Program-made: the position numbers and the translations under genes
DNA from: Macrocystis pyrifera
Taxonomy: Eukaryota; Sar; Phaeophyceae; Laminariales; Laminariaceae
Direction: 5' to 3'
Assembly: GCA_031763025.1 (NCBI GenBank)
Contig: JASSKH010000006.1
Span: 372,001-436,000, forward strand
DNA length: 64,000 nt
Shown: positions 1-56,700 of the stretch, in pieces
Layout: every line of letters starts with the position of its first letter
How positions within the stretch are numbered: position 1 is the first letter of the stretch
Notes under the pieces: model-generated
What the model saw: the letters and a program-made list of their open reading frames with translations, nothing else
The model's database searches: none
What the model was told of the DNA's origin: nothing

Positions 1-3000
1 AGCCAAAGTGAGCAACAAACGCGGGGTCGGCAGGAAGAGGAGGCGAGACGCAGTACCTACGACGCCGCTTCGACAAAGGGCGGGGGCGGCGCCAACAACG
101 ACGAGGGCGTCCCGGCGCAGCAGTACAGCAACTTCGCGTTGAGCGCCCTAGATGTGGACACCCCAAGCAGCGTGGCAGCCGTGGGAGCGGGGGCTAAGCA
201 GGTGTGGGTGCGCGCATTCGTGTGGCACCACACCAGAACCAGTTGCCGCATTCCAGTGGAAGTGCTGGTCGACACGGGGGCAGGGGGTGGAAATTACTCT
301 TCCGCGGCATTCGTACGCTCCGTCGAACGCAGTGGAAGAGGGGGGCAATCGATGATGAGCCCGAGGGGACAGGGGTGGTTGAGGGCAGCCAACCCCACGG
401 GCAGCGCAGTCCCGCCAATGAAAATTTCCGGGTCGTGCGAGCTCCCGCTGGTGTTCAGCCCGGAGGACAGGGTGCGCAAGGTATTGGTGCGGGTGGTGGA
501 GGACCTCCCGTACGGCCTTATCATAGGAGCGGCGTTCCTGAGAAAGAATGGCAGCACTATCAGCTTCGCGGCCGGGGGAGGTTTCAAACCGGCACCAGAG
601 TCACCTTGGGTGCCCTTCATCTCGTCAACGGGAGCCTCCTCGTCAAAGGTGGCGGAGCGGAAGGCGGTGAGCTGGCATGCGTCTGTCCAACCGAGCAGGG
701 CAGAAGTGGAGCCAGTGGCGACCGGGAACGCGGCAACGTGGGAGCAATTTTGCGCCGTCAAGCCACCCTGTGGAGAGGGAGAGCCGGCGGAAATAACCGA
801 GCCGCGCACACAACTAAGCGAGGGCTCAGCGGCCTGGGAGGACGATGGCACCCTACAATGGGAACTACGTCCAGCCCGACATACGGTGGTACCGGGTTTC
901 GTCAGCGCGCAGGTGGACGCTTATGCCAAGGGAGTCCAGCCCCAAGACAGGCAGCTGGTGGTAGTGGAACCGAAGGCTTCATACGACATGGAGACGGGGG
1001 CAGAGTTGGGGATCGCGCGCGAGGCGCAGTGGTGGCACCCCGGAACGCCGCTCCAGTGCAAAGTGGTGAACCGTTCAAAAGTACCCTTAGCGCTGAAGCA
1101 GGGCGGGGTCGTTGCTCGGATTTACGCCGTCAACACGAGGGACAAGGAACGGATGCGGATGCTATTAGACCCCGTCGTGCAAGCAGAAGGCACATCGGAG
1201 ATGAAGGAACAGTCAGTGCTGGTGGCGCCGGAGGAACGCGCAGGTGAGGGGGCGGACGCCGACGGGGTGGACTTGTCGTTGGCCAACATCGCTCAGACGA
1301 GTGCCCCAGTGAAGGAAGCCCTGATTCGAGCGTTGGAGAAGTACCGCCATGTGTTCCCGGTGAACCCGAAGATTGTCCCGGCCTGCAATCGAGCTAAGTT
1401 GCAGCTTCCGCTGACTGACAACAGCTGCACGCCCCACGCAGCAAAACAGCGACGGTATTCGCCGGAGGAAACGGCCATGATCCAGAGCGAGGTGGCGAAG
1501 CAACAGAAAGCGGGGACGATTCGCCGGTCGCAGTCAGCGTGGGCAGCAAACTGCGTCGTTGTGGCAAAAAAGGATGGCACGGCGAGGGTCTGTCAGGATT
1601 ATCGAGGGCTGAACGCGCTGCTGGAGTCCAATAGCGGAGGGCTGGGGGATATCGCAAGCATCTTCGACAACATGAGGGGCGCCACGTGCTTCACGTCCAT
1701 TGATCTAGCGTCAGGTTTCACCCAGTTGGAAATTGCCGAGGAAGACAAGCACAAGACCGCGTTTCGTGACGCCCATGGGGAGCTGTGGGAATTCAACCGG
1801 TGCGGTTTTGGGCTGAAGACCCTTCCTTCCGGCTTCGCGGCCAATGTGGGGGAGGCTCTGGGTCCGCTAAAAGGAAAAGGCGTGCAGAACTGGCTTGACG
1901 ACATCATCATCCACACCAAACACGTCGAGGGACATGTGGATCTGGTGGAGAAGGTGCTGGCGCGGCTCCAGCAATTTGGGTTGTCGGTGAACCTGGCCAA
2001 ATCGACTTGGTGCGCTCCGCAGCAGGAGTTCGTCGGCATGGTTGTCAGCAGACTGGGCGTACAACCGTCAAAAACGAAGATAGAAGCGGTGGCCAGACTC
2101 TCTCGCGCTAACACGGTAGAGGAGGTCAGGTCACTTTTGGGCATGGGCAGCTACCTCAGGAAGTTTGTGCCCGGATACAGCTCGATCGTGGCGCCTATCT
2201 CGGACCTACTCAGGGACAAGCGGTTCGCGTCAAAAAAGGCAAGGAGGCTCCGAGTGCCGTGGGGGGTGGAGCAGGACAAGGCTCTGAAGGCGCTGATCGA
2301 GCTCCTCACATCGCCATTGATTTTGGCGTTGCCCAATTGGGAGGCCACGTTTCAACTGCATACGGACGCCAGCGAGCTGGGTGCGGGAGCGGCGCTTACG
2401 CAGGACACCAGGGGAGAGGAACGTGTCGTTGGATACGCGAGCCACCGGTGGTCAAGGACGGATGCCAAACGGTCCGCAACCGAACTAGAGGTGATGGCAG
2501 TGTTGTGGGCCATCCAGCATTTCAGACCGTACTTGTGGGGAAGGAGATTCGTTCTGTTCACCGACTGCTCCGCGCTCACGTGGCTGTTCAAGAGCCAGGC
2601 CCTCTCGTCGAAACTCCACCGGTGGGCGCTCAGGTTGATGGAGCACGACATCGACCTCCAGTGGCGACCGGGGGCAAACCACCAGCTGCCGGACGCCCTC
2701 TCGAGGCTGCCGCCGAACGACGCGCCGCGCACGGACATCGATGACTCCTTCCCAGACGATCCCTCCACGAGGACCACGTACCGGGGCCCCAAGGGACCGG
2801 TGCTCGACGGCGTACTGCTCAGCGAACTGGGGGCAGACGAGGTGAACAAGCCAACGGGAAAAAAAAACGCGGCGGTTGCGGCAAGCGTAATTTTTACCCC
2901 AGGCGGGGCCGTCGACGCAGACACTGAGAGAGCCGCCACAACGTCCGCAGCCGAGGAGCATCCAGTCGCCGTGGTGCTCTGCTGCGGGGGGGGAGGTGGT

Positions 3001-3255
3001 CTCATGGCGGCGAAGGAGATGGTCGCAGTCAAGGGTGCCACCGACCACGACTGGAGAGCGCTCGAGTGCGTTAGGGAGAACGGGTTGGACCAAGGAGTTC
3101 GACTGGAGAGCGGAACTAGGGGGGGAAGATTGCAAAAGGCTCTTGAACGACTTGAGCCCGAGCGTCGTGATGGGAGATGCATCCAGAACGTCAGGCCAGC
3201 GGGGGCCCGGTGGAGCAACAACCTTGGCAACGAATATCGTGAGGGCCTTCATTGA
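1..3255 (+). CDS. Gypsy polyprotein part 1: gag tail, aspartic protease, reverse transcriptase, RNase H (5' partial)
   Basis: This part would cleave the polyprotein, copy element RNA into DNA and remove the RNA strand. The frame is open from base 1. The retropepsin signature VDTGA lies near 268-282. The reverse transcriptase shows FTSIDLASGF near 1690-1720 and the catalytic WLDD at 1891-1902, where most families have YLDD or YVDD. RNase H acidic residues appear in HTDASELG (about 2360), ATELEVMAVLWA (about 2480), FTDCSALTWL (about 2570) and PDALSRLP (about 2690). At about 2959-3075 the same frame carries the glycine-rich segment VVLCCGGGGGLMAAKE, which looks like motif I of a cytosine methyltransferase, and then loses homology, so the C-terminal 50 residues are probably a frameshift artefact. 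Confidence 0.88.
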   Translation, partial: SQSEQQTRGRQEEEARRSTYDAASTKGGGGANNDEGVPAQQYSNFALSALDVDTPSSVAAVGAGAKQVWVRAFVWHHTRTSCRIPVEVLVDTGAGGGNYSSAAFVRSVERSGRGGQSMMSPRGQGWLRAANPTGSAVPPMKISGSCELPLVFSPEDRVRKVLVRVVEDLPYGLIIGAAFLRKNGSTISFAAGGGFKPAPESPWVPFISSTGASSSKVAERKAVSWHASVQPSRAEVEPVATGNAATWEQFCAVKPPCGEGEPAEITEPRTQLSEGSAAWEDDGTLQWELRPARHTVVPGFVSAQVDAYAKGVQPQDRQLVVVEPKASYDMETGAELGIAREAQWWHPGTPLQCKVVNRSKVPLALKQGGVVARIYAVNTRDKERMRMLLDPVVQAEGTSEMKEQSVLVAPEERAGEGADADGVDLSLANIAQTSAPVKEALIRALEKYRHVFPVNPKIVPACNRAKLQLPLTDNSCTPHAAKQRRYSPEETAMIQSEVAKQQKAGTIRRSQSAWAANCVVVAKKDGTARVCQDYRGLNALLESNSGGLGDIASIFDNMRGATCFTSIDLASGFTQLEIAEEDKHKTAFRDAHGELWEFNRCGFGLKTLPSGFAANVGEALGPLKGKGVQNWLDDIIIHTKHVEGHVDLVEKVLARLQQFGLSVNLAKSTWCAPQQEFVGMVVSRLGVQPSKTKIEAVARLSRANTVEEVRSLLGMGSYLRKFVPGYSSIVAPISDLLRDKRFASKKARRLRVPWGVEQDKALKALIELLTSPLILALPNWEATFQLHTDASELGAGAALTQDTRGEERVVGYASHRWSRTDAKRSATELEVMAVLWAIQHFRPYLWGRRFVLFTDCSALTWLFKSQALSSKLHRWALRLMEHDIDLQWRPGANHQLPDALSRLPPNDAPRTDIDDSFPDDPSTRTTYRGPKGPVLDGVLLSELGADEVNKPTGKKNAAVAASVIFTPGGAVDADTERAATTSAAEEHPVAVVLCCGGGGGLMAAKEMVAVKGATDHDWRALECVRENGLDQGVRLESGTRGGRLQKALERLEPERRDGRCIQNVRPAGARWSNNLGNEYREGLH

Positions 3256-4810
3256 TTCGACGGCCAGGCTTCTCCTGCTCGAATGCTACCCGAATTTACT
3301 TCGATCGACGGAGTGGGGGCAGGTAGTGCTGCCTGCGTTGAAGGAAGCGGCGTGTACGGTGGAGACAGTCGAAATGACGGCGGACATCGTGGGGGTTCCG
3401 TCGGGGAAGAGGAAGGCGTTCGCTGTCGGCGTGAGGAGCGGGAGGCCCGAAAGGGAAGGTGAGAGGCTAAGAGAGTGGAGGAGGGATATAGAAAAGCGCG
3501 ACCCAGGGTGCACATCTCTAGGTAGATTCTTGGGGAGGAGGGGAACCTACTTCCTCAAGCGAGGCGTGGAAGAGAGGGGGGTCTTTTCTTTTGATGATCC
3601 AATCATTTCCATCACTCGAACGCACATTATGGGAGAGAAACCCCCCGAAGGAACGTACATACCGCACCCTTCGGACGCAAGCGATATCGACCAAGCAGAC
3701 GAGCTGACTTTTGTGGAATACAAAAAACTCGCCACCGGACGAGCGGACTACCGAGTGCCCCCAACCGTCAGCAGGGGAGCAGCGGCCGCGATATTGGCGG
3801 ACTTTTCATTGCCACCTATGGCGAGAGAGGCCTTGTCGGGGTTGTGGGCAAAGGGGCTGTTGATAGACAAAGCCAGGGGGAAGCAGCTTCACGGAACTAA
3901 ATCGCTGGAAGGCTTGCAGGCGCTCTTCGAGGAGGACATAGCCGAAGTAATGCCGGCGGTCACGAGGTCCAGAGCGGGCGTAGCGGGAGGAAGGTCAACA
4001 GAACAGCATGCGCAGGTGCCAAGGCCGCTTGTTACACAGACGACCCCGACAGCACTGCCGTCGGCATCGCAGATACAGCCCACGGAAAACTTGCCGCCAC
4101 AGTCCAGAGCACAGCCCCAGCCGAGGCGGCGAGCACCGAGAGCGGAATACTCGGAATACCCGGGACCCCTTCCTTCCATGGTCGACCAGGTAGCGGAAGT
4201 GTTGCGTGATAAGCCACGGCTGGTGCAACGGCAACGGGAGGACGCGCGACTTGGCCCCATTTGGGGCCGATTGCGAGGAAGAGGTGACAGGCAGTCACCG
4301 GAAGGGACGGCGAACTACGTTCTCGACGACAACGACTTATTGTGGAGCACGCCTCGGGGAGAGGCACCGAAGTTGGCCATTCCGAGAGCATTAGTGCCAG
4401 GGGTGCTGGCACTCGTGCACAGTACCTATGGCCACCCGGGAGTTGCGCGGACCCTGCTGCTGATTAAGGGCAAGTACAGATGGCCGACAGTAGCCCAGGA
4501 CGTCAGGGAGTACGTACTGTCGTGCGGTTGCAGGAGGAGAAAAAGGGCCCGGAGTCAACGCGTGGCCATGATGCCTGCTCGGTTATTGTGGCCTTGGGAA
4601 GTGCTTGAGATGGACCTCCAGGACATGAAGCAGGTATCCAGTGCAGGAAATAGGTACCTGCTGGTAGTGGTGGATCGGGCCAGCCGGTTCCTGTTTGCGT
4701 ACCCGCTGGAATCTAAGGATTCGGTGGGAGTCGCGAGGAAACTCCTGGAGCTGTTGCTCACGTTTGGCGTGCCGCTGTCGATTAGGAGCGATGCCGGGGG
4801 GGACCGCTAA
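2996..4810 (+). CDS. Gypsy polyprotein part 2: C5-cytosine methyltransferase-like domain and N-terminal integrase
   Basis: The true join to part 1 is probably near 3075-3090; the first 28 or so codons of this frame have no homology. Residues about 50-290 follow the motif order of C5-cytosine methyltransferases: a motif IV position reading GDASRTSG at residues 59-66, where active enzymes have GPPC; a motif VI position reading LLECYPNL (ENV expected); a motif VIII position reading VPSGKRKAFAVGV at 133-145 (QxRxR expected); and a distal block at about 200-290 resembling motifs IX-X. The catalytic cysteine is therefore absent in this copy. A low-complexity stretch follows, then the integrase zinc-binding domain (HSTYGHPG, with CGC for the cysteine pair) near 4413-4520 and the first two catalytic acids in LEMDLQDM and RSDAGG. 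The frame breaks in seven G at 4796-4802. Confidence 0.75.
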   Translation: MVSWRRRRWSQSRVPPTTTGERSSALGRTGWTKEFDWRAELGGEDCKRLLNDLSPSVVMGDASRTSGQRGPGGATTLATNIVRAFIDSTARLLLLECYPNLLRSTEWGQVVLPALKEAACTVETVEMTADIVGVPSGKRKAFAVGVRSGRPEREGERLREWRRDIEKRDPGCTSLGRFLGRRGTYFLKRGVEERGVFSFDDPIISITRTHIMGEKPPEGTYIPHPSDASDIDQADELTFVEYKKLATGRADYRVPPTVSRGAAAAILADFSLPPMAREALSGLWAKGLLIDKARGKQLHGTKSLEGLQALFEEDIAEVMPAVTRSRAGVAGGRSTEQHAQVPRPLVTQTTPTALPSASQIQPTENLPPQSRAQPQPRRRAPRAEYSEYPGPLPSMVDQVAEVLRDKPRLVQRQREDARLGPIWGRLRGRGDRQSPEGTANYVLDDNDLLWSTPRGEAPKLAIPRALVPGVLALVHSTYGHPGVARTLLLIKGKYRWPTVAQDVREYVLSCGCRRRKRARSQRVAMMPARLLWPWEVLEMDLQDMKQVSSAGNRYLLVVVDRASRFLFAYPLESKDSVGVARKLLELLLTFGVPLSIRSDAGGDR

Positions 4811-6017
4811 GGTGGTCGCCCACCTGTGCCAGTGGCTCAGGGTGGAGCTGGATCATGGTCCTGCGGACCACCCTCGTAGTCAAGGAGCCGTAGAAAGGAT
4901 GGGGGGTTGGCTTCAGGAGGTCTTGGCAGAGCTTTGCAAATCCTGGCCGGCAAGGTGGGACGAATATGTAAGCGCGGCTTGCTGGATTCAAAGAACTACG
5001 CCGGACCCGCGTCTCCCGTCAGGTGGGACACCCTTCAAGATTCTGTTTGGCCGTGATGCGCGCACAAACCTGGATGCTCTTACTCCTGCGCTGGACGGAG
5101 AAAATTTCCGCACTGGGCTCGACAATTTCGTGGCGGAGAGACACCAGACGTTCATGGAACTGCGGGCAATGCTGAAGAAGCGTCAGGAGGACAAGAACAA
5201 GCGACGCGTACGCCACAATGCGGCCATTAGGCGACACTCTCCAGGCGAAGGGGCGCGAGTGGGAGACCTGATGCTGGTAAAGGAGGCAGACAGCAAGATG
5301 GCGCGGGAGGGCACTCACGTCAAACTGGCACATGAACACTGGACGGGGCCGTGGCGGGTGACGGCCATTGCACAGCCGGGTATCAGCTACCAGGCGACAA
5401 TGAGCGGCCGCCGGACCCGGAGGAGAACGGTTTCGGCTGCCAACATTAAGGAATTTCACGTGCGGCCGGAGCATCTGCGCCATGCCTTCGAGGACGAATT
5501 CGCGCATCTGGCATGGGGCGCGGACTTGGGGTTGGCAGACACCTCGACGGTGGCGGTGCCGCTCTATACCCTGACGGACCGGCGAGCCATGGAGAGCACG
5601 GGGACCGGGTGGGAATGGCAGTACCGAGGCCGGTACCAAAGTGGGGTGGAGTCAGAGTGGCTACCTGAACAGGAAGTGAGGGACAGCTTCACCCCTCTGC
5701 AACTCGACGTCTTCCATGCCCTCTGGGAAGTGTACAAGGGAAAGGACTGCCGGCCCCGGCCGCCGGAACCACTACCGAAGGAAGAGCGTGACCAGGGGGT
5801 GCGAACGAGAGCGCTGCAGGACTTTCCGACGGGGACGCAGGTCAGGCGGTCGTTTGCTGGAGTTGATGGGGTGAGTCGAGCGGCGGTGGGAAAGGTGTAC
5901 GACTTTAGGGAGCCGTATTGGCGAGTGAGATACCCTGACGGAGATTGGGAGGAGCTTAACCGCAGCGAAGTGACTCGCGGGATCGAGGAACACCGGAGCG
6001 CCGCGGGCCAGAGATGA
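4695..6017 (+). CDS. Gypsy polyprotein part 3: C-terminal integrase, chromodomain-like and Tudor-like modules
   Basis: The meaningful part starts at the G run 4796-4802; the residues before it are out of frame. It continues the integrase core with the third catalytic acid, E in GAVERMGGW (4893-4895), giving a complete D, D, E set across two frames. After the basic C-terminal integrase region (about 5160-5470) comes WEWQYRGRYQSG...SEWLPEQEV (about 5611-5685), the pattern of a chromodomain, which in gypsy chromoviruses guides integration to modified histones. A second module at about 5824-5970 (GKVYDFREPYWRVRYPDGDW) has the V-x-Y-x-DGD-x-E pattern of Tudor/Agenet-like domains. The stop TGA is at 6015-6017. 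I infer that the two C-terminal modules act as chromatin readers. Confidence 0.82.
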   Translation: MRTRWNLRIRWESRGNSWSCCSRLACRCRLGAMPGGTAKVVAHLCQWLRVELDHGPADHPRSQGAVERMGGWLQEVLAELCKSWPARWDEYVSAACWIQRTTPDPRLPSGGTPFKILFGRDARTNLDALTPALDGENFRTGLDNFVAERHQTFMELRAMLKKRQEDKNKRRVRHNAAIRRHSPGEGARVGDLMLVKEADSKMAREGTHVKLAHEHWTGPWRVTAIAQPGISYQATMSGRRTRRRTVSAANIKEFHVRPEHLRHAFEDEFAHLAWGADLGLADTSTVAVPLYTLTDRRAMESTGTGWEWQYRGRYQSGVESEWLPEQEVRDSFTPLQLDVFHALWEVYKGKDCRPRPPEPLPKEERDQGVRTRALQDFPTGTQVRRSFAGVDGVSRAAVGKVYDFREPYWRVRYPDGDWEELNRSEVTRGIEEHRSAAGQR

Positions 6018-6137: not shown

Positions 6138-6686
6138 TGTTGCAGCGCCGACAGTGCTTCGAGGAGGATACTACGGCGACAGTGCTTCGAGGAGGATAAT
6201 ACGGCGTGAGACAGCTGTTCTGATCAGTGTCGCGCGTCGGGTCTATTCGATAGGCAGAGGGCAAGCTTTGATTAGCATCCTCTGGGCGGATCTTATAGGG
6301 GCAGGGAGGATCCCCGGTGTGGGAACGCCTTCGGTCTCGGGTACAGAGCCAGTAATGAGGTTCCGGGACCACCCGGTGTTTACTCGACACCACCAAGAGA
6401 AGAAAGAAAGTCAAAGCCAAGTGATCTGTGATACCTGTCCTATCGACCCCCAGCCCCTTGGGCCCTGCCTTGCCCGTCGTGCCCGTCATCGTGTCTGTGG
6501 TGCTTCGTTGAGTGTTCACGCTGACTGCTTGCATCTACCGCATCGCATCGATCCACGTTTTGCGTGACCTGATCATTACTGCTTGAAGGCACTTCCTCGA
6601 ACTCCCAAACAACAGGTGAGCCGGCCTCAGAGATCTAACGAGCGCAGGTCCTTCTTAGGGTCTGAGAGCTGTACCCTGCTGTAACA
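6138..6686 (+). repeat. 3' LTR of the gypsy element
   Basis: The 549-bp segment starts TGTTGCAG and ends CTGTAACA, which are imperfect inverted repeats (TGTTGCAG against TGTTACAG) and give the standard TG...CA ends. It lies after the polyprotein stop (6017) and the purine tract. The 5' LTR is outside the window, so the boundaries rest on the end motifs and not on an alignment of two copies, and the target duplication cannot be checked (bases after the LTR read AATAC). Confidence 0.75.
6149..6204 (+). repeat. 28-bp direct tandem repeat inside the LTR
   Basis: Two adjacent 28-bp units at 6149-6176 and 6177-6204 begin CGACAGTGCTTCGAGGAGG and differ at two positions near their ends. Repeats near the start of an LTR (U3) are often enhancer-like binding sites for the element's promoter; that role here is inference. 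Confidence 0.8.
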
Positions 6687-8564: not shown

Positions 8565-11500
8565 TCATTTCGCTTTACCCACCGGTTTCTGCAGCACCAC
8601 GAAGCCCCAGCCTAGGAGGCCGCGAGAGTTCGCTGACTTCCAAGCCAGGAACCCTTTCAACATGTCATCTATGAACTGCTCCCCCACGCCTGTCAGGTTG
8701 TTGCGTTCAGACGCAAGCACCTCATATTGCTGCAGGATCGAGTCGGTTCCGATGGTTAGGTTGGTAGGGGCTCACTGTTAAAAAAGCTTTCATGGTAGTA
8801 CGAGCGAAATACGAGTACAGGTTGGACTGAGGCGTGCGTCTTCAGCGCCTGCACAATACTTTTTTCACAAGCTCCCTAGAGTCAGAGCTTGGAATTGATC
8901 GAGCACCAATTCTGCGTGTCCACTGCTCGAATGCAAGGCAGGACCCGCCAGCAGCGCAACTACTGCCTGCCGCAGAAGAACACTGGGCAGGCGAGCGAGA
9001 GTTCTTCGCAAAACGGATGTAAAGATAGAGACTGTCTGGACCGAAAGAAATTGGCAGGTAATACATCACCGACTCGGTTCGCCTACGCCACACATCGTAC
9101 CATATCCATCAGCTCAAGGCAAGACAGCAGAAGGAATAGGCGACGAGAAGGGCAGTCCCATAATGTCTAGTGTGGTATAGATCATATATCGGGGGGGGGG
9201 CGGGGTCGCGGTGGGGTAGTTATGTCCAGCGGCGTTGCAAACCATATAAGAAAACATGTATTTCCCGATACCCCTTTGGGCTTCCCTCCCTGAGGTCAAT
9301 GCCAGCGGAAACGTCGTCCCCGAGAGAATTATAGCAGGCGGTGTCGCACACCCGAACACCGTGGAAACTATCTGGAACACTCGCGGGAGACCAGGCTCTC
9401 ACCAATGCGTGGTGTATCTCAAGGTTTTCTGACAGGTTGGTGGACTCGACGACCACTAGACCGCAATCCTTGCTCCATTGCTGGTAGGACGTCAGCGTGG
9501 CTAAGTCTTCCAGCCTGAGGGTGTCATACGCCTTCCAAACCGCAACAACATGTGACGAGGAGCGTTAAGTAGCAGAAACAAACGATATGTGAGACGAGGG
9601 GGGGGCGAGGGCGCGCGGGGGGGGGGGGGGGGGGGTCGGGCGTAGCGGCGAACGTAGGAGGCCTCATATCGCTTTGTTTATGACTTGGTATCTACCACTT
9701 CACCAGGAGGACGAACATATTCAATCACGGTGGGAAATGTACCCGCCGAGCGAGCCATTTTCACACTCGACGCGTAGAGCCAAGACCGGACGCCTACCGT
9801 TTCTTCTAGGATCGACATAGCCTTAGGCTGCGAGAAGGCTGAGCCAAATACCTCGTATGGCTCAGACGATTTCATGCAAGGGCGAGGTCAGCCTAGACGC
9901 TGCGATCGTGAATCTCGCGGTGTTTCTCGCCAAATAACGGGTAATCGCATCTAGAGGACACAGCTACACGCCCGTGTACCGCTAGGGCATACTTGGGCGT
10001 GATGAATAGGACCATCGCCTTGTGCGGGGTCAGGGTTATGTAGAGAGGACTACTACGGGGGTCCATAGTTAATAGGACCTACGGTATACATAAAAACCTA
10101 TACATTTAGGTATTTTTACTAACAATATTTGGTCCCGTTAACTATGGACCCCCGTACTAGGTTCTTGAAGGATCCATGTGAACCTAACGGAGTGCCTGAG
10201 GCCCTACCGCGCTCTGACGAATGAAATAGTACCATCTGTGTGCTGAAGAACGAGGTGGCTGTCGGGACAATCAGGCATGAGATGCACGAGCACTTCACCA
10301 CCTTCCGCCAATACTCGGCAGTTTATTCTCATAGTCACGTCAGCTCCCGGCGCCCCTCGCTTCCCTCCAGCCGTCAATGCCGTCAACCTCATTCACCCCC
10401 CTCTCCCCTCACCGTCTGCAAGTCCTCGGCCTCGGCATCCTCCGCCTGAATGTAGTCCGTCACCACCATCCTGCCCCCTGGCTTCAGCACACGCGCCGCC
10501 TCCGCTATCGCCCTGGGCCGCCCGGACCCCGCGTGCAGCAGTGAATCCTGTGAGATGACGACATCGCAGCTTGAGTCCGGCAAGCCTGTATCGAAGAACG
10601 AAGTCTCTCCAGGAATTATGATTTTGTCCTCCAGCCCAGCGGCCTTGTTCAAGGCGGCGTTCAAGACGTTCTGTTTCTTGGCGATGTTGATGCAGATCAC
10701 CTTTAGTAAGGCTCGCGCACAGGAGGGTGGGGGGAAAGGGGGCGGTATGGGATAGGCTCGGTGTTGCACTGTGCGGGTTTCATTGTCAGAGGCGGTAGTA
10801 GCACCTGCAGTAGGAAATACGGATATGGTGCACGTGCTTCGACATGGGTGTACGTAGCACGTTTTGTCCGTTGCTTGTTTTCTGACTGAGGGGGGGACAT
10901 TTATCGAGGAGTAGGGTAAACGAAACAATTATCAAGTGAAGGAGGGGAGGGGGCGAAAGTAGGAGTCTGTGAGGCGGCGATAAACGAGATATTTTGTTTG
11001 TTCAGATTGATCTTAACTACTATCTGGTGCTAGTGCATTTTCGACGACACTCGATTCAAGTCGGACTGGAAACGTATTCCGATACATTCTCCAAACGGGG
11101 AAATACAAAAAGTTCGGATTGGCTCTGGCTCCAATGTGGTTTGATTTAGTAATATTCGGTTTGACACCTGGCGAAGCTCCACAGGAGACTCAGAAAATGA
11201 ACTTTCCACCCCTACAGTACTGCAGTGCATCCTGGAATATCTTTTCTCGAGAAGGCTTATAAGTCGTCTCCTACGCATCCTGCCGTGCGTTTCGGGCCAG
11301 AATGCGAACGCAGGAACAAATCGCCGAAATCCGGGAATATAGGTACTCAGTAACATGAAATATATGGCAAAAGGCAGAAGGGGGGCATGTCTGTTTTTCC
11401 GCATCGACTTCCACCGCCTCTTCAGGTATTCATATGTGCTGCTCTGCTTCCTTCCTTTTGCCTCGTCGATATTTTTGCTCTCGCTATTTTCATGCCTGTG

Positions 11501-19784: not shown

Positions 19785-21737
19785 TTCGTGAAAGATGGGC
19801 GGGGCACTACCACAAACTATTGAACACGAAATCGCTGAAACTTGACCCCACGATCATCGACCTAGTGCCACCACGACCGCTGAAACTATCCCTTGGAAAT
19901 GAACCTTCCATTGACGAGATGATGGAAGCAGTGAAGGGTATGTCAAACTGGAAAGCCGTTGGACCAGATGGTCTCCCGGTCGAAGTACTGAAACTTGACC
20001 ACCCCGCTTTCGTGCAGTATTTTCACAGTATCCTTGTTAACGTTTGGGTAACGGGACAAGTCCCCCAGCAATGGAAAGATGCGATCATAAAAAAACCCTT
20101 CATAAAAAGAAGGATAGAACTGATTGCAACAACTACAGAGGTATTTCGCTTGTTGCTCACGCAGGCAAGGTGTTGCTGAAAATCGTTGCGTCCCGTCTAA
20201 GCAGCTACTGCGAGACCGAGCATATACTCCCTGAAGAGAACAGTGTGGCTTCCGCCCTGCACGGTCAACAGTCGATATGCTGTTTGTCGTGCGCCGGTTG
20301 CAGCAGCTCGGACGGCAGAAGAAAATCCCCCTGTACATGTGCTTTATCGACTTGCAGAAAGCGTACGACTCTGTCGACCGAGAACTGTTGTGGGAGGTAC
20401 TCACACGCCTTGGTGTACCAACCAAGATGCTCACAATCATTCGCAATTTTCACGAAGGCATGCGGGCTCGCGTGCGTGCGGATGACGGTGAACACTCGGA
20501 CTGGTTCAATGTAACCCAGGGACTGCGGCAAGGCTGCGTACTATCGCCGTTACTGTTCAACGTGTTCTTCGCCGCTGCGATACACATCGTGCTGGTACGC
20601 TTCAGCAAAGACGAATGCATCGTAAGGGATTTGGTTCATCTCGAAGAGGACAGGGTTGTCGGAAAAGAGGAACCGTTGGCATGCGTGCAAAGGGCTGTGT
20701 GGGGCATGTTGTATGCAAACGATGCAGGAATAGTCTCGAAGTCGGCGGAAGGCCTTGCGAGAATGATGACAGTCATCGTGACTGTCTTCGAAGCAGTAGG
20801 TCTCACGGTATCCGAGAAGAAGACAGAGACGATGCTCCTACGAACACCGGATCAGACGTTTACCACCTCACCGCTCGCGATCGAAGCTGCAGGCCAAAAG
20901 TATAAACAGACGACCCAGTTTTTGTACCTAGGAGGCATTATCCACGAGAACGCTGACCTCTCCTTCGAAATCGAGCGACGAATCCGTCTGATGCGGGCAT
21001 GCCTCAAACGGTATGGTCCGGAACTGTACGATAGGACGAACGCACCGCTTAGTCTGAAAGTCCGGATGCTGAAGGCCGAGGTGATTGAGACCTTGCTGTA
21101 CGGTTGCGTGACGTGGACCCTCAATGCGGACCACTTCGCCAAGCTTCGATCAGCCCACCACGAAGTCCTTCTGCGAGTCATTGGTTTCCAGCGCCGACTA
21201 CGCACCGACCACACCACCCTCTCGTATGCGAAGGCGCTCAGGATAACACGATGCGAAAGTATCGAAACGACCATCCGTAAACGGCGACTCTTCTTTGCGG
21301 GGGCTGTGGTGCGGCAACACGAGGGGCGATTGCCCAGTCGGTTGATGTTCGGGACGATCGCTGGTGGGGGGAGCCCGAAACCAGGCGGGCAGCCTAAGAC
21401 TTGGCCTAGGGCAATTGCTGAGGACCTTAGAGTGTTCAAAGCCACAGAGGGATCAACGGAAGACTCCCCCTTAGTCTTTGGAGTTGGGACCGCACTGTGG
21501 CCCACTGCAGCAAAACAGACGGGAAAGTGGTACCGGGGAATCCTCGAAGCAGCTGAACAGTTCATGGGCAGGTGGCACGAGGCTGAGGCAAAGCTGAGTA
21601 GACAGCGCCGTGCATCCGCTGCAGGTAGTGTTAGAGGGAATGGGGGGAGGGGTAACAGCAGGAGGGGTAGAGGGAACACCGTACAAGTGTATAGGGGCAG
21701 GGGGGGGAACAGGAGGAGTAGAAGGGAAACCGCGTAG
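19785..21737 (+). pseudogene. Non-LTR (LINE) reverse transcriptase, 5'-truncated and frameshifted
   Basis: LINE reverse transcriptases nick the target and copy their RNA at the break. The similarity starts abruptly at the SINE junction with RERWAGHYHKLLN and passes through WKAVGPDGLPVEVLK (about 19950), then [16 protein letters not shown] in a second frame (about 20128-20170), then [33 protein letters not shown] and the catalytic box YANDAGIVS (about 20710-20735) in a third. The box is YADD in active enzymes, so the first catalytic aspartate is changed to asparagine. The C-terminus is rich in R and G. With two frameshifts, a missing endonuclease domain and an altered active site, this copy is dead. 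Confidence 0.88.
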
Positions 21738-32036: not shown

Positions 32037-33178
32037 TAGGGTCGGGTGGCGATCATGAATAGATCAGAATGTGTCTCAACCAATGCCGCATTTCCGTTGA
32101 CAAACAGCTTTGTGCAAAGAGGATTTCCCAAATAATTATGAACGTTTACTAATATTAATACTACTGTAACAGTCTTTTCTTAACTTCTCTACCTACATGA
32201 CAGCTTTTCGGATATCCGACCAACTGTCTGAGTAGGTCTCTCCTATCCACTACATCGTGCAAGCGGCGGAGTCGACTGCCGACGCCGGCAGGAAAAACAA
32301 ATTCGGGAGTGCGGTGATATAAAACTCTCGAGGCAATGCGATAGTTTTTTTTTTTGGGGGGGGGTTATGTACGCTAACGAAAATAAAAAATCGCGTTGTC
32401 GTTTGTTTTTGCTGGGGCGTGTCCGCGGCGCCTTACTGTAGAAGGCGCCTGCAAGACGATTATACTACAAACCGTGGTTGAATCAGTGATCTGGGTCCTA
32501 GATGATAGTGTACAGAACATTTAGTTAGTTAGCTCTACATCTTACTCTACTTCCTCGGTATTTTTCCGCACCCGTGCGCGCCACCAAACATGTGTGTATG
32601 TACAGCAGCCGTATAGTATGAATAGTAGCTATACCTGGTACGTATTTCACGTTTTCCCCCAGCCACAATTTTGACCAGCGTGTGAGTAACCCGCGGGATG
32701 CTCGTATAAGTCAAATTGCCCCCCTTCACCCCGAACTTCTCTCTACCTCTGCCTTTTCCTCCATCCTCTACCGCGTAATAAGAAATGTACACAGAGCACC
32801 TACGCATGTATGCCCTTCTTTTTGCGCAAGCATCGGTCGTGACCTCTATGTAACCCGTACGTATTCCGCGAATTACTCGTCATACGAAACTTCACTTTTT
32901 ATTATCCACCGATGGATGGGTAAAACCCAAGCTCAAGCTCACCACACTTCCACATATAATGCAATGCATATGTCGTGTGTCAACCTAACTATGTTAAACA
33001 CAACGGTTGTTGTAGAACCCAACGGTGCAGCCGAAGCAACACAAGCGCAATTTGCTGTAACATCGGGCGCGTGAGTCAATTTGTTAGGAAGTTAAGTTGA
33101 GCATCGTCAACTATATATCACCGCAACTCTGGTACACTGCAGAATAGTTTATGCACAACTTCAACCTCCGAACAAAAC
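32037..33178. other. AT-rich stretch between SINE S5 and the YR2 left repeat
   Basis: No gene is supported. An open stretch at 32682-33070 ends at a strong donor-like GTGAGT (33071) with protein-like final codons (VEPNGAAEATQAQFAVTSG), so a host exon is possible, but I found no partner exon in a matching phase. Confidence 0.4.
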
Positions 33179-33493
33179 AGCAAGGTTTTCGTAGGGGCAA
33201 CATGGTGGTTTGGGGGGTAACGGGTAGAAAAGATAAACCAGTGAGGGGATGAGACTGTTTCGGAGGGTTTCCCATATAATAAGAACGGATTTTGGTACGG
33301 GGTCAGGATGAAAAATAATGGAAGTTCCGGATGATATGATGAGGAAAGACCAACGCAGTTCAGACACGAGCAAGCAGTGGTAGCGCGGTGTGAAGCGGGG
33401 TCGTCGGTGCAGCGAGTATCCTGGATAGCTAGCGAACGGGCAAGGCCCTGCACGAGCTGAATAGAACCGGGCAAGGGACATCAGGGAGTCGTC
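33179..33493 (+). repeat. YR2 left terminal direct repeat (315 bp)
   Basis: It contains TCGTAGGGGCAACATGGTGG, AGGGTTTCCCATATAATAAG and GAGCTGAATAGAACCGGGCA, each matched at the right end. There are numerous mismatches between the two copies, which points to an old insertion or to repeats that did not arise from one template. Confidence 0.88.
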
Positions 33494-39380: not shown

Positions 39381-39825
39381 GAGCATGGGGGGGGGGGAGT
39401 TTGAGAGACAACCAGGACAAGGGACTAGATGGGGCTAAATACTGTAGGTGCTATTCTGCCCGGTATAGTAAGGACCGCTTGGGAGGCTACAAAGTACCCA
39501 AGCAGTCCTCACACATATCCGGACGAAGGGGGAAAGGAACCGCGGAACCGCGGTCTCGTGAGGGTAGGCGTTCCACTAGCGGAGCGCAACCGGTAAAGAG
39601 GTCGACAGCGTTTCGTTTGTGTGGGCGGGGGGAGAGGCGCATGCAAGCGAAAAGGGGCGGGGCGACCCCCCCTCTCTTTTTCTCTGTTCCCTCCGGCTAT
39701 TTTATATAGGCGTAAGAAAGGCGTACGCATGCAAGGGGGGGACGGGCCAAGGCAGTCCCCCCCCCCCACCATTTCGACTTCTTCAATTAACGTCAAGCAT
39801 TTTTCGTGGAAGTGGGCAACCAAAG

Positions 39826-40140
39826 AGGAAGGTTGTCGTAGGGGCAACCTGGTGTTTGACGGGTAACGGGTAGAAAATATAAACCAGTGAAGGGATGAGA
39901 CTGTTTCAGAGGGTTTCCCATATAATAAGAAGGGATGTTTGGTACGGGGTAAGAATGAAAAATAGTGGAAGTTCGGGATGATATGATGAGGAAAGACCAA
40001 CGCGGTTCAGATACGAGCAAGCAGCGGTAGAGCGATGTGGAGCGGGGTCGTCGATGCAGCGAGCATCCAGGATAGATAGCAATCGGGCAAGGCCCTGCAC
40101 GAGCTGAATAGAACCGGGTAAGGGACGTCAGGGAGTCGTC
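39826..40140 (+). repeat. YR2 right terminal direct repeat (315 bp)
   Basis: It is the partner of 33179-33493, with TCGTAGGGGCAACCTGGTGT, the identical AGGGTTTCCCATATAATAAG and GAGCTGAATAGAACCGGGTA. It ends at GGGAGTCGTC, as the left copy does. Confidence 0.88.
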
Positions 40141-50700: not shown

Positions 50701-53700
50701 CGGCCGCTGCCGCTTAAGCTTGCTTTACATTAGTGTAGTGAGCTACGCCCAGTGATCTTGCCGTATATTCTGTGTTGGATGGGACTTGCGTTAAGGAGCG
50801 TCTATCCGTGATTGGATCCGTAAGCAGTCAGGTGAAAACTCGTTTTTTTGCCGTGAACGTGCTCGATGGGTTGGGGGGGGGGGGGGGGTTCACTTTAACT
50901 TTGAAATCCGAGGGGGTTTTGAAAACATACAATTACACCCGCAGCAACGGCAGCAACATGCTCAGACCTCAGAGCTCGCCCTACAGAACCCCCTCGTGAG
51001 AGGTAGCATCATACCAAATCAGTTTAGTTTGCGGCTAGTCTGCTGCGGAGAAGGTGTCTAAAAACTAAATGAATGAACGATAATGAGAGCAACCGACGAC
51101 AGGTGGAGCTGCAGCACCAACTTGGTCTTAGTCGAAATACGACTTCAAAACCGTGTCGGCGGTCCTCGAATGCCACTCAAGGTAACATCGATTGCTTTCA
51201 AGCGGCAACAGCAGGAGAACTGTAATAGCGCGGTATGTATGCTGTAGCTCCGGCGACAAGTGCTGTATACATCAATAAACGAAAACTCGCAAATCTACAG
51301 GCCCTTTAGGATCCCTGTGGATCACACCCCGATGATAGTGCATGGGCTTCGCCTCGTCACCCCGGCAATTGATTTTGTATCGACGGGCCGCCCTCCCCGC
51401 TTCCCGCTCCTCGAACAGGCCTAACGTCACTCCACGCCACTTCTTAGATAGCTACCACCTTACATTCGAGGATTTCCGTTACGGCACCATGGTTGCGACC
51501 AGAGTCGCAGGGACGGGAAACACTAGTACTAACGTACCAGGTGCGTGGTAACGATCATTGCACGCACATAGAAAACAGTTTAAGATCCCAAGTACGTAAC
51601 TCTCGACAATGCTGAGGGGGCAGCGGGCGCCCATGAATCTGCCATCATTGCACGCACATAGAAAACAGTTTAAGATCCCAAGTACGTAACTCTCGACAAT
51701 GCTGAGGGGGCAGCGGGCGCCCATGAATCTGCCGTACTTCGGCCCCAAAGAGCCATACAGTGCACGACCTCCTTATTCCGATGGGTTTGGTGTTGTCGAC
51801 CATTCTCCCCATCGCAGAGACTCTCGAAACTTTCCGTCGATAATCATTACCGCGTTTTGGCGACAGACGTATGATTTTTTTTTTTGTATGTTACTAAATG
51901 CGCTATTTTTATTGGTTCTGAACGTTTGCAATTAACATGCTCAGTCACCAGGTGCCGGCCGTAGCCTGTATTCATGAATATGTGTCGACGGGCTATCCGG
52001 GTGTTGCAACATGTATCACAGCCGCGCTACCACCCATTCAGGCGGCGGGATATTATTATGTACACTTGTGAGTATCATTTCCGCCCTCTCTGAAGCAACG
52101 GTGTTGCTGTTCCCTCGCGGCCGTATTAGCCTGCAATCGGCAAACCAATGCGACAGCGCCATGATAACTTACCGCTCATGCCGCCCATGCCCACGACCTC
52201 GTGTTCTTTGCCGCATGCCTCCGAAACGAGGGTTTTTGCTGCCGTTATCGTGCCGTTGAATAGCCCCAGCAGAAACCTGGCGCGGGAACATATCCTGTTG
52301 ATTGATGTCTAAAGGTATAGGCGCAGCTGGCACGGGAACGCGTGGTTGACTCCAGACAGTAACACGGAACTTCTCTTATATTATATCCGAGCTGTCGAGT
52401 GACAGCTCATGCATCGTATGCAGGTTATTATCCAACATGACGCGGGAATAAACCTCCCGCTTATCCCCCCGAATATCCGACTAAATATCCCTCTCCTATA
52501 ATCCTATGTCAATATATGGAACTCCCTAATATTAGATGTAACGTCTCCGTCGTGTTTCTGAGCACAATCAATATCCCCCCTGCTCATTATTCACGACCAT
52601 ACTTTAATATCCCCTCAGCTCTGTACACTACAATGTACGACTCCGCTGGGTGGAAACATCTCAATATTATGACCAACTCATACAAAATTCAGAAACATAA
52701 TTTCACTCCAGAACCAAAAATCAAACTCTCAATTTCCAAAATACTATCCAAACTCTCCAACTCAGAAAACATTTTCTATGGACCGCACACGCCCCCAGGC
52801 GCTTCATAGTCTCTCTTCAACCTTATCCAAAAAAATCTCCCTCCATTTCGTGAGGAATTAATGCAAATCATATAAAATATCACAGTAGTCATACTCATCA
52901 AAATAAAAATTAAGCCAAGAAAATAAATGCCAGAGATCGCAAGGAACCCCGTTCCCCCGGACAAGGGTCTCCCCTTGTCCCCTACTCCCGCCATAGATAC
53001 ACAGATCGCGACGGTAATGCGAGATAGCGTACATTCCTTCACTTGAATTTTATTTGACGTGGGGACTACGCGAAAACACCAAAAACTCTCGAAATCCATC
53101 ACCAGGAACGAAATGGTATCATCCTTGGAATTAGCCAGGGGGAAAACGGCAGCATCTTTGGATTTATACGTAGTTCAGACAAATCCTTCACTCAAAAATA
53201 ACATAAACTTTCCACCTCGGAAAAACCGCGTCAAATATTCATCAGAAAATCCCGGTGGTAACGAAACACCGTGTTGTTGAGCGGCTTTGTCAAGAAGTCT
53301 GCATGCTGTTTCTCCGACTCTACATGGGTAATAATAAACTCCCCCTTAAAAATAAGCTCGCGCAAAAAGTGGTGTCGTACGTCGATGTGCTTCGAATTCG
53401 ACGTGCACACTGGATTTTGTGCCAGGTGCCTTGCCCCCTCGTTATCCTCGAAAACCGTAATGCATCTCTCCCCAAACCCCGGAAAAATAAACTCCATACA
53501 TAGCGCTTGAGCATTCCCTCCTTGATGGTGTCTGCCAGTGCTACATATTCCGCCTCAGTGGTTGAGAGTGTGACGCATTTCTGCGTCCTAGAAAACCAGC
53601 ACACACACGCCCCAGCACACATGATAGCCCCACCGGAAACTGACCTCCTGTCAATGGCTTTATTGGCATAGTCTGCATCTGCAAACGCTACCAGCTCAAG

Positions 53701-56700
53701 CCCGCTACCCTTCTGGAACGTAATGCCGAAATCACTCGTAGAAAATACATACTCTAAACTACCGACTGCTGTCTTCCAGTGTACCTCCCTCGGCCTATTC
53801 GTGTACCTCGCTACCGCCCTCACCGCGTTCGCAATATCCGGTCGTGTTTGGTTCGCAAGCCACATCAAGCACCCCACCAACTCGCGGAAAGGCCAACACC
53901 CACGGGTTCATTCTCGTCATACTCCTCGAGCTTCACACCAGTCGAAAGCGGGTTATTCCTCCCAGAACTAACACCAAACCTCGCCGCGGTATTTTCAGCG
54001 AACGCCTGCTGCGAAATCGTCAAAGTACCAGCATCCCAATCCCTCGAAAAACAACAACCAGCATACCACCGCAACTCGCCCAGATTATTGATCGGAACAA
54101 GGTTGTTCAGGTCGTCACAGAACTGATCGCATCTAGCCTTGAGTCCTACAGCAAAAATATCATCCACATGAACTACCGTTACAATGGAGACAGAGCCCGA
54201 CTCGACCAACCTCATGACACACGCGTCAGCGGGGCTCTGCTCAAATCCTAGACTCTTCATGTGAGTGAGAAGGTGGTTGTGCCACGACCTCGACGCTTGC
54301 TTCAAGCCGTGGAGACTGCGATTCAACCTGACCACCTTACCAGACATTTCGCCGCAGCCGGGAGGTAGTCGCATGAATACATCCTCATCCAAACTCGACT
54401 GCACGAACGCCTGCTCAGCATCAAAATGACACAAATTTAAACCCAACTCGCACGCAATAGCACCCAACAAACGGAAACAAGACGCTGCAGGCGTCGGAGC
54501 AAAAGTCTCAAAGAAATCAATACCCTCACGCTGCTTAAAACCTCGTGCCACCAGCCTTGCTTTCGCCCGCACCACGTCACCATGCTCGTTGGACTTCCAG
54601 GCGAACACCCACTTCGCCGAGATGACGTTGAGCCCCTCTGGTTGCTACGTCGCTCCAAACGTCCCCGCGTCCGCCAGCCCATGGTACTCCTTGTCCATCG
54701 CCTGTCTCCAGATGGCCGAATACTCGTCCGCACACGCTTCAGCATACGAGTTCGGCGTCCAAAGCTCGCTCGCCGGGCGTGTGGGAAAGGGAGGGTTCTC
54801 GCGCGGTGGGGCTTGGTGGAAAAAGACATGGCCTATACCTTCCCGCGCTGCCATCAACGACAGCAGCCCATGCCCCATAGCCTCGCAGTTCCGCGCAGTC
54901 TCCCCTCTTGTCCGCCCCCTCAGCACATCTCCACCTTCCGGGTGTCGCCCAGCTTCCCCCCTGGCCCGATCACCCTGCACACCGCCACCACCCTCCTGGT
55001 GTCGTGCGGTCTCCCCCCTAGTCCGCCCTCTCTGCACAGCGCTACCGCTCTCCTGGTGTCGTGCAGTCTCCCCCCTTGTCCGCCCCCTCAGCACATCGCC
55101 ATCCCCCGGGTCGGGGATATAATAACCCAGTGCCCGGGCAGCACGCTGTGAAAGCTGTGGCTGCGGTGACTGCTGCGACGGCGACGGCGATGATAACGGC
55201 GGCGACGGCGGCGGCGGTGACGGTGGCTGTAGCGGCGGCGGTGACGATGACGGAGGCAGCGACGGCGACGGTGACGGCGATGGCGGTGGCGACGGCGACG
55301 GCGGCGGCGGCGGCGGTAGCGGCGTTGATGACGGCGGTTGTGACGGCAGCAGTGGAGATGGGGACGGTGGCTCGGGCCATACGTCGGGGCCCCTCAGAGG
55401 CTCCGGCGCACCCGGCGGCGGTGACGACGGCGACGGCGGCGGCGGGGAGCTCTCCTCCTCCGAAGGCAGTAACCCCACAAACGGTTTCCTCGGGTGTTCC
55501 CAAGTGACGTCACGGGAGAACGACCTTCGGCCAGACATCAGCAGGATCTTGCTGCAGTCAGCTGCGTGGTGGTTGCCGCCGTTGAGGTAGAAGCAAGCCT
55601 CCGCCTTCGGCTCGGTCTTCAGGGTCCTCCTGACGTGGTGGAAGCCCGGCTTCAGAAACGGGAGCAGCCGCGCAAACGGTGGTCTCCCGTAGAATTTTCG
55701 GTACGGCGAGTGCATTTGCGGCTTGTCCCTTACCCTCGCCGTCATGTTGATCACATCGCTCGCGTACACGCATGACTCAGCCCAGAGGGGCTGCGTCGCC
55801 GGCATCCTTGCATCGCCGAACAGGCGGGTGGCCTCCAGGCGGGACGCCATTGCAAGCTCCAGCGTCATGGCGATCCGTCGCTCGACCACCCCGTCATGCT
55901 TCGGAGAATCGACGGGCGTGTACTCGCGGCGGGTGCCGTGGTGGTTGAGCAACTCCACGAACTCCGCCTTGGTGAACTCGGTGCCGTTGTCCGAGCGAAG
56001 GCACTCCACGATGGACGGCACACCCTTCGCGTTGATGTCGGCCAGGAAACCAGCGAAGACCTTCGGGACGTCGGACTTCCGCTTCAAGAAATGCGGCCAT
56101 CCCAGTCGCGAGTAGTCGTCGACGATCATCATCAAGTATGACGCACCGCCAGCAGACGTAGGCTGTTGTCCCGACAGATCCACGAACAGACGCTCCAGAG
56201 GCCTGGTAGAACGGCACTCGGTCGTCCACGGCACCGCCATCCTCCTCTCTTTCGCCTCAGAACACCCAGCACACGGAACCAACTCCCCAAAAACCTTAAT
56301 GTCCATCTGGCGTGCCGTCTCACGGAGAGTGTCAGCATGGGAGTGGGCAAGGGCAACGTGAAGGTCGTTAATTTCGTCCTCATTTTTCCAGGAGCCAAAA
56401 CAGCGGCAGCAATCGGGGTCTCTACAATCCGCGTGGCGTCTACGTATGAACCCGCGTCCCTACGCACGAAAGACAGCTGTCCATTCAACGTATGAGCTCC
56501 CTGAGCATCAAGCGTCACGGGGCATTTCAACATTACTGCATGAAGCGAAAATAAGTTGAAGCGAACACCGGGTACGTATGCTACGTCCATCAGCCTAACT
56601 TGAACGTCACCCTGAGAGCTGTGCATCACAATTGGAATCTGGCCGAAGTACTCTATCTTCAGCGACCTCATGTCACCGACCACCAAACGGCTCTTACCAG

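What the first reader, a model, noticed from the sequence alone, without database searches (positions are those of the whole stretch)
2959..3870. C5-cytosine methyltransferase-like domain inside a gypsy polyprotein, with catalytic motif lost
Seen: between RNase H and integrase, a glycine-rich motif I (CCGGGGGLMAAKE), a motif IV position without PC (GDASRTSG), ECY at the ENV position, VPSGKRKAFAVGV at the QxRxR position and a distal block like motifs IX-X. Known, from memory: retrotransposons carrying DNA methyltransferases have been described in dinoflagellates and charophytes, and the brown alga Ectocarpus has been reported to lack detectable cytosine methylation. Inference: an independently captured or shared domain that in this copy is catalytically dead, perhaps kept for binding DNA or RNA, or simply decayed.
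Basis: partly seen in the sequence, partly recalled or inferred. Interest (0 to 1): 0.85.

Follow-up and report, generated by a model that had tools for sequence, protein, structure and literature searches.

The report
Dead methyltransferase inside a kelp retrotransposon
A jumping gene in what is probably a brown-alga genome carries a protein domain shaped like the enzymes that methylate DNA but without the residues that do the chemistry, and related jumping genes have kept it in this form, which suggests a second, non-enzymatic use.

The parts
1..3255 (+). first open frame: protease-like DTG region (about 262-600, by eye), RT and RNase H; runs off the left edge of the window
   Evidence: Pfam RVT_1 3.4e-17 and RT_RNaseH 2.9e-30; protease motif recalled, no Pfam hit in 1-900
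1564..2043 (+). reverse transcriptase core (RVT_1)
2260..2643 (+). RNase H (RT_RNaseH / RT_RNaseH_2)
2959..3865 (+). C5-methyltransferase-fold domain (MTL), split over two frames in this copy, with a frame break near 3.1 kb
   Evidence: fold; profile
2977..3003 (+). motif I position: Gly-rich loop LCCGGGGGL (the Phe of FxGxG is Cys here; the Asp before it is absent)
3040..3066 (+). motif II position TDHDWRALE: acidic residue kept; this exact string in 34 of 47 loci of family A and others and 5 of 7 of family B
3173..3187 (+). motif IV position GDASR in place of GPPC
3272..3286 (+). motif VI position LLLEC in place of ENV (Glu kept in family A)
3395..3418 (+). motif VIII position VPSGKRKA in place of VPQxRxR
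3701..3865 (+). distal block like motifs IX-X (ELTFVEYKKL...VSRGAAA...PPMAREAL)
   Evidence: both models pair this helical end with C5-methyltransferases, at pLDDT under 50
3866..4378 (+). variable linker between MTL and integrase
   Evidence: least conserved segment in the 3 of 4 relatives in which it aligns (70, 34, 35% identity)
4379..4798 (+). integrase zinc-binding domain and core (Integrase_H2C2, rve), frame-broken near 4.8 kb
5832..5975 (+). C-terminal Tudor-like domain (PTM_DIR17_Tudor, just under the Pfam cut-off)
6138..6686 (+). 3' LTR; the 5' LTR lies left of the window at C220:367515-368062; the two are 99.45% identical over 549 columns

Best explanation
The segment is a C5-cytosine-methyltransferase-fold domain captured long ago by a Tudor-bearing Ty3/gypsy lineage of (probably) brown algae. 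It has lost canonical catalysis (shown by sequence: no Pro-Cys, no ENV, no QxRxR) while keeping the Rossmann core (shown by model), the Gly-rich loop and the acidic motif II (shown by sequence). It is retained as a non-catalytic module of Pol between RNase H and integrase (inferred from conservation and dN/dS). Most likely it binds nucleic acid, and perhaps S-adenosylmethionine, within the reverse-transcription or pre-integration complex, beside the Tudor-like domain at the end of Pol (inferred, untested). Estimates: fold identity 0.93, canonical catalysis lost 0.9, kept by selection 0.6, nucleic-acid or cofactor binding as its job 0.4.
Against: A close sister family (L101-L104) has integrase 76-79% identical to A but no MTL, so the domain is not indispensable. 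MTL is less conserved than RT/RNase H and integrase, and in L031 and P0024 its N-terminal part is also less conserved than the RNase H-side spacer (42 against 57%, 38 against 50%). Median pairwise dN/dS of MTL (0.46) is only slightly below spacer (0.51) and linker (0.55) and above RT/RH (0.40) and integrase (0.30). Family B has a Cys at the motif IV place (6 of 7), and one family B copy, L036, has both that Cys and the Glu of motif VI. The C-terminal half is modelled at pLDDT under 50. No binding data of any kind.
Confidence: 0.6

Rival explanations
1. Relic in slow decay: a once active captured DNMT lost its use when the host lineage lost DNA methylation, and is now a passenger that is eroding and has already been deleted in one family.
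For: Sister family E shows no MTL; the best rooted RT tree nests E beside A, i.e. loss (support 83/91), though E as first branch is not rejected (p-AU 0.112, one long outgroup); MTL evolves faster than RT and integrase; published loss of DNMT1 within brown algae (PMC12459048, passages).
Against: dN/dS below 1 in 46 of 46 copies; four families with a readable domain at 38-54% identity to family A; motif IV differences between families are whole residues inside open frames.
Confidence: 0.22
2. Active but non-canonical methyltransferase: the AdoMet site is kept and another residue (the Cys of HAC in family B, or a different chemistry) does the work on DNA or RNA.
For: Gly-rich motif I and acidic motif II are the best kept motifs; Cys in 6 of 7 family B copies, one of which (L036) also has the motif VI Glu.
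Against: The other family B copies lack that Glu (1 of 7 has it), and families A, C and D lack the Cys. Host 5mC is reported as low in S. japonica and negligible in Ectocarpus (PMC6916402 and PMC12477816, passages).
Confidence: 0.12
3. Unrelated gypsy linker, or another Rossmann methyltransferase class that only resembles a C5-methyltransferase.
For: No Pfam, NCBIfam or PDB sequence match to C5-methyltransferases; no match of A4 to single Dcm; Foldseek also lists other methyltransferase classes, from rank 28 for model 1 and from rank 5 for model 2.
Against: All 50 listed VIA rows are C5-methyltransferases for both models; the profile match is in register over motifs VI-VIII, and over columns 15-179 in one leave-one-out; integrase control 15.8.
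Confidence: 0.05

Closest known systems
KnitGypsy-Dnmt3 of Klebsormidium nitens and SymbioLINE-Dnmt / SymbioDIRS-Dnmt3 of Symbiodinium (PMC5890265)
   Same: C5-methyltransferase domain inside a retroelement coding frame; the Klebsormidium one is in a Gypsy Pol ORF and under purifying selection (section 9 read).
   Different: Those keep key functional residues, and the abstract reports de novo CG methylation by retrotransposon DNMTs; the present domain lacks PC, ENV and QxRxR in all families seen.
C5-methyltransferase ('DCM')-encoding Ty3/Gypsy and DIRS elements said to occur in stramenopiles among others (PMC6338049)
   Same: Ty3/Gypsy elements with a C5-methyltransferase-type sequence in the host group suspected here (one passage seen).
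   Different: The passage names no element, host species or catalytic state, so kinship could not be tested.
Gypsy-10_Ec32, Tudor-bearing Gypsy of Ectocarpus (PMC12477816)
   Same: Gypsy Pol with a C-terminal Tudor domain in a brown alga (section 5 part 1 and passages).
   Different: No methyltransferase-like domain is mentioned for it in what I read; sequence kinship could not be tested, as supplements were not available.
DNMT3L (mammals)
   Same: Works like: a catalytically inactive DNMT relative acting as cofactor (abstract in search listing, PMC11021467).
   Different: Not a retroelement protein; no evidence of direct descent.
Canonical C5-methyltransferases (M.HaeIII, M.HhaI, DNMT1, DNMT2; PF00145)
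   Same: Fold and motif order.
   Different: Catalytic residues missing; below Pfam detection.

Membership tests
C5-cytosine methyltransferase (PF00145) | Rossmann fold with motif order I-VIII and a motif X helix returning to the core | tested here: met
   the distal half is at pLDDT under 50
C5-cytosine methyltransferase (PF00145) | Match to the Pfam profile | tested here: not met
   none of 16 alignment members listed at E up to 10, filters on
C5-cytosine methyltransferase (PF00145) | Catalytic Pro-Cys, motif IV | tested here: not met
   0 of 55 loci; 0 of 10 rows
C5-cytosine methyltransferase (PF00145) | ENV, motif VI | tested here: not met
   LLLEC in 35 of 48, LILQC in 3 of 7; ENV in none of the strings listed
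C5-cytosine methyltransferase (PF00145) | QxRxR, motif VIII | tested here: not met
   PSGKRK 37 of 48, PYNRKR 5 of 7: basic but not QxRxR
C5-cytosine methyltransferase (PF00145) | AdoMet binding (motif I FxGxG, acidic motif II) | tested here: inconclusive
   Gly-rich loop and acid kept, Phe and Asp of motif I replaced; no binding data
C5-cytosine methyltransferase (PF00145) | Methyl transfer to C5 of cytosine | not testable with these tools
   needs an assay
Ty3/gypsy LTR retrotransposon | RT - RNase H - integrase order between LTRs | tested here: met
DNMT-bearing retrotransposons (de Mendoza et al. 2018) | Conserved key functional residues of the DNMT | tested here: not met
DNMT-bearing retrotransposons (de Mendoza et al. 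2018) | DNMT-fold domain within a retroelement polyprotein ORF | tested here: met
   natural open frames through RNase H, MTL and integrase in L004 (2019 aa) and P0022 (1978 aa)
Tudor-bearing Gypsy lineage (Gypsy-10_Ec32) | C-terminal Tudor domain | tested here: met
   PF21743 9.2e-6 in the window, 8.7e-4 in family B; both under Pfam's cut-off of 27.2 bits
Tudor-bearing Gypsy lineage (Gypsy-10_Ec32) | Sequence kinship to Gypsy-10_Ec32 | not testable with these tools

The most novel reading that the evidence does not exclude
A retrotransposon lineage captured a DNA methyltransferase, then turned it into a conserved pseudoenzyme that serves Pol as a nucleic-acid- and cofactor-sensing module, and this repurposed domain has outlived DNA methylation in its hosts.
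Probability: 0.4. Interest if true: 0.75.

Novelty: new variant of a known kind. Interest (0 to 1): 0.6.

Why it matters
It would show that a retroelement can keep a methyltransferase for something other than methylation, in hosts reported to have little or no DNA methylation. It gives a testable case of an enzyme domain turned binding or structural module within Pol, comparable in logic to DNMT3L and (from memory) to the degenerate RNase H 'tether' of retroviruses. It also suggests that Tudor-bearing Gypsy elements of brown algae may hold a further domain that Pfam cannot see.

Tried and rejected
Pfam, NCBIfam and PDB sequence searches with the domain alone and (Pfam, PDB) as an alignment gave no C5-methyltransferase; weak hits (PrmC-like 0.0044 on the motif I piece, 3-methyl-2-oxobutanoate hydroxymethyltransferase 0.23, PolC_DP2 0.16, nicking enzyme 2.1) were set aside as chance. 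Viral contigs: none of 3 pattern matches encodes a relative. A profile of the ragged alignment A4 against single Dcm found nothing. Local decay as the reason for the missing PC was rejected because no examined locus has it. The source of the domain (DNMT1, DNMT2 or bacterial type) could not be decided; DNMT3-type structures are not among the 50 VIA rows of either model, which excludes nothing. Loss or primitive absence in family E is not resolved. In one search (30 copies; 117-340 of 435 pairs usable per segment) the RT/RH and IN divergences (pS 0.10-0.11 against 0.04 in MTL) look inflated, since copies were picked by MTL and some differ at the flanks; I rely. The 27 viral-contig Dcm relatives were fetched but not used; of 40 phage hits listed (877 records matched) I took 10.

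Literature: PMC5890265 (section 0 part 1 = abstract, introduction and start of results; section 9; passages), PMC12477816 (section 5 part 1; passages), PMC6338049, PMC12344493, PMC6916402, PMC9998398, PMC12459048 (passages only), PMC4421812 and PMC11021467 (search listings only). 'Not found in print' rests on searches in an open-access library; subscription papers and supplements were not seen, and the PMC6338049 passage leaves open that related elements have been noted before.

Full report
What was checked. The window is stretch 372001-436000 of contig C220 of a 537.4 Mb genome in 223 contigs. That size equals the 537 Mb published for Saccharina japonica (PMC4421812, abstract in search listing); the species is inferred, not shown. 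The finding sits in a Ty3/gypsy element with RT and RNase H in one frame, integrase in another and a Tudor-like domain at the end of a third. Its LTRs (C220:367515-368062 and window 6138-6686) are 99.45% identical over 549 columns, so this copy is young although its Pol frame is broken near 3.1 kb (inside the domain) and near 4.8 kb (integrase). Family letters A-E below are mine.

The motifs. Many other copies carry the domain in one frame: 23 of the 30 best copies have no stop within the matched stretch. I used L004, whose natural open frame is 2019 codons long, to read the domain without joining anything.

Is catalysis lost, and where? I looked at 55 loci: the 30 best copies and 25 chosen from the rest of the 145 matched stretches. 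At the motif IV place 0 of 55 have Pro-Cys. Family A and scattered others read GDASR in 40 of 48. Family B reads GHACR in 5 of 7, with Cys in 6 of 7. Relatives found in the protein database read GNTSR or GNKSR (family C) or have a deletion there (family D). The Glu of ENV is kept in A (mostly), C and D but replaced in most of B; one B copy, L036, has both the Cys and the Glu. The Gly-rich loop and the motif II acid (TDHDWRALE) are the best kept parts. So the canonical set is complete in no locus seen, and the state is shared by four families.

Decay or use? Against L004, dN/dS over the domain is 0.16-0.76 in the 46 copies with over 150 comparable codons (54 loci tried). Median pairwise dN/dS among 30 copies is 0.46, against 0.40 for RT/RH, 0.30 for integrase, 0.51 for the spacer and 0.55 for the linker (flank figures are less reliable). 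Between families the domain is kept better than the linker beside it but less well than RT and integrase, and in two of four relatives (L031, P0024) its N-terminal part is also less well kept than the RNase H-side spacer. This is what a functional but less constrained module would show; it does not prove use. Against need: L101-L104 are a sister family (E) with integrase 76-79% and RT 58-78% identical to A (family B: integrase 63-65%; RT 43 and 53% in the two loci with one continuous match), in which no match to the domain is found at E up to 10; the frames of L101 and L102 run from a similar spacer straight into the linker. The rooted RT tree puts this family with A (83/91), implying loss; the alternative, that it branched off first, is not rejected (p-AU 0.112, one long outgroup). 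The integrase tree leaves the order open.

The host. PF00145 rings at two exons about 4 kb apart on one strand, read as one locus with SPPCQPF, ENV and FTKGYG, which I take for DNMT2 from memory of its motifs. This agrees with the report that S. japonica encodes no DNMT but DNMT2 and has about 1.4% methylated cytosines (PMC6916402, passages; that paper counts six DNMT2 genes), with negligible 5mC in Ectocarpus (PMC12477816, passages), and with loss of DNMT1 within brown algae after the Discosporangiales split (PMC12459048, passages). No canonical C5-methyltransferase in a retroelement was detected in this genome by PF00145 at E up to 0.01.

Mechanism. Shown: fold by model, place in Pol, lack of canonical catalytic residues in every family seen, dN/dS below 1. 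Inferred: it works as a binding module. The kept parts are the cofactor side of the fold (Gly-rich loop, motif II acid) and a basic patch at motif VIII (SGKRK, YNRKR, STKKK), so binding of AdoMet and of nucleic acid are the natural candidates. Its place just before the integrase suggests the pre-integration complex; the Tudor-like domain at the far end would read chromatin. None of this is tested.

Known relatives. Active DNMTs inside LINE, DIRS and Gypsy elements are known from Symbiodinium and Klebsormidium (PMC5890265, sections read); they keep key residues. A review passage speaks of DAM- and DCM-encoding Ty3/Gypsy and DIRS elements in stramenopiles among others, naming none (PMC6338049). 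Tudor-bearing Gypsy-10_Ec32 is known (PMC12477816), and what I read mentions no methyltransferase-like domain in it. A conserved, catalytically altered C5-methyltransferase fold in a Gypsy Pol was not found in searches. I rate it a new variant of a known kind.

Noticed in passing
G000:C219:11749400-11753600 (L101), L102-L104: Sister gypsy family with closely related RT and integrase but no detectable methyltransferase-like domain.
   Followed up: partly
L031-L037 (family B): A second gypsy family whose domain has a Cys at the motif IV place (6 of 7 loci, mostly GHACR) but mostly not the Glu of motif VI.
   Followed up: partly
window 5832-5975; L099 996-1106: C-terminal Tudor-like domain in both gypsy families, like the one reported in Ectocarpus Gypsy-10.
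   Followed up: partly
window 53320-58096 (- strand): Copia-type element (RVT_2 9e-42, rve 2.7e-9) with a glutamine-rich gag-side frame.
   Followed up: no
window 20235-21737: Reverse transcriptase frame (RVT_1 1.4e-24), by eye of non-LTR type.
   Followed up: no
window 10389-10928 (- strand): Frame with a Methyltransf_11 match (3.2e-10), a class I methyltransferase-type exon with no seen link to the finding.
   Followed up: no
window 33118-33480 and 39509-40006 (- strand): Two frames share the peptide FLLYGKPSETVSS, suggesting an unnamed repeat.
   Followed up: no
G000:C193:13118874-13122797: The only PF00145 locus detected in the genome, with DNMT2-like motifs; PMC6916402 reports six DNMT2 genes in S. 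japonica, so assembly, search or species may differ.
   Followed up: no
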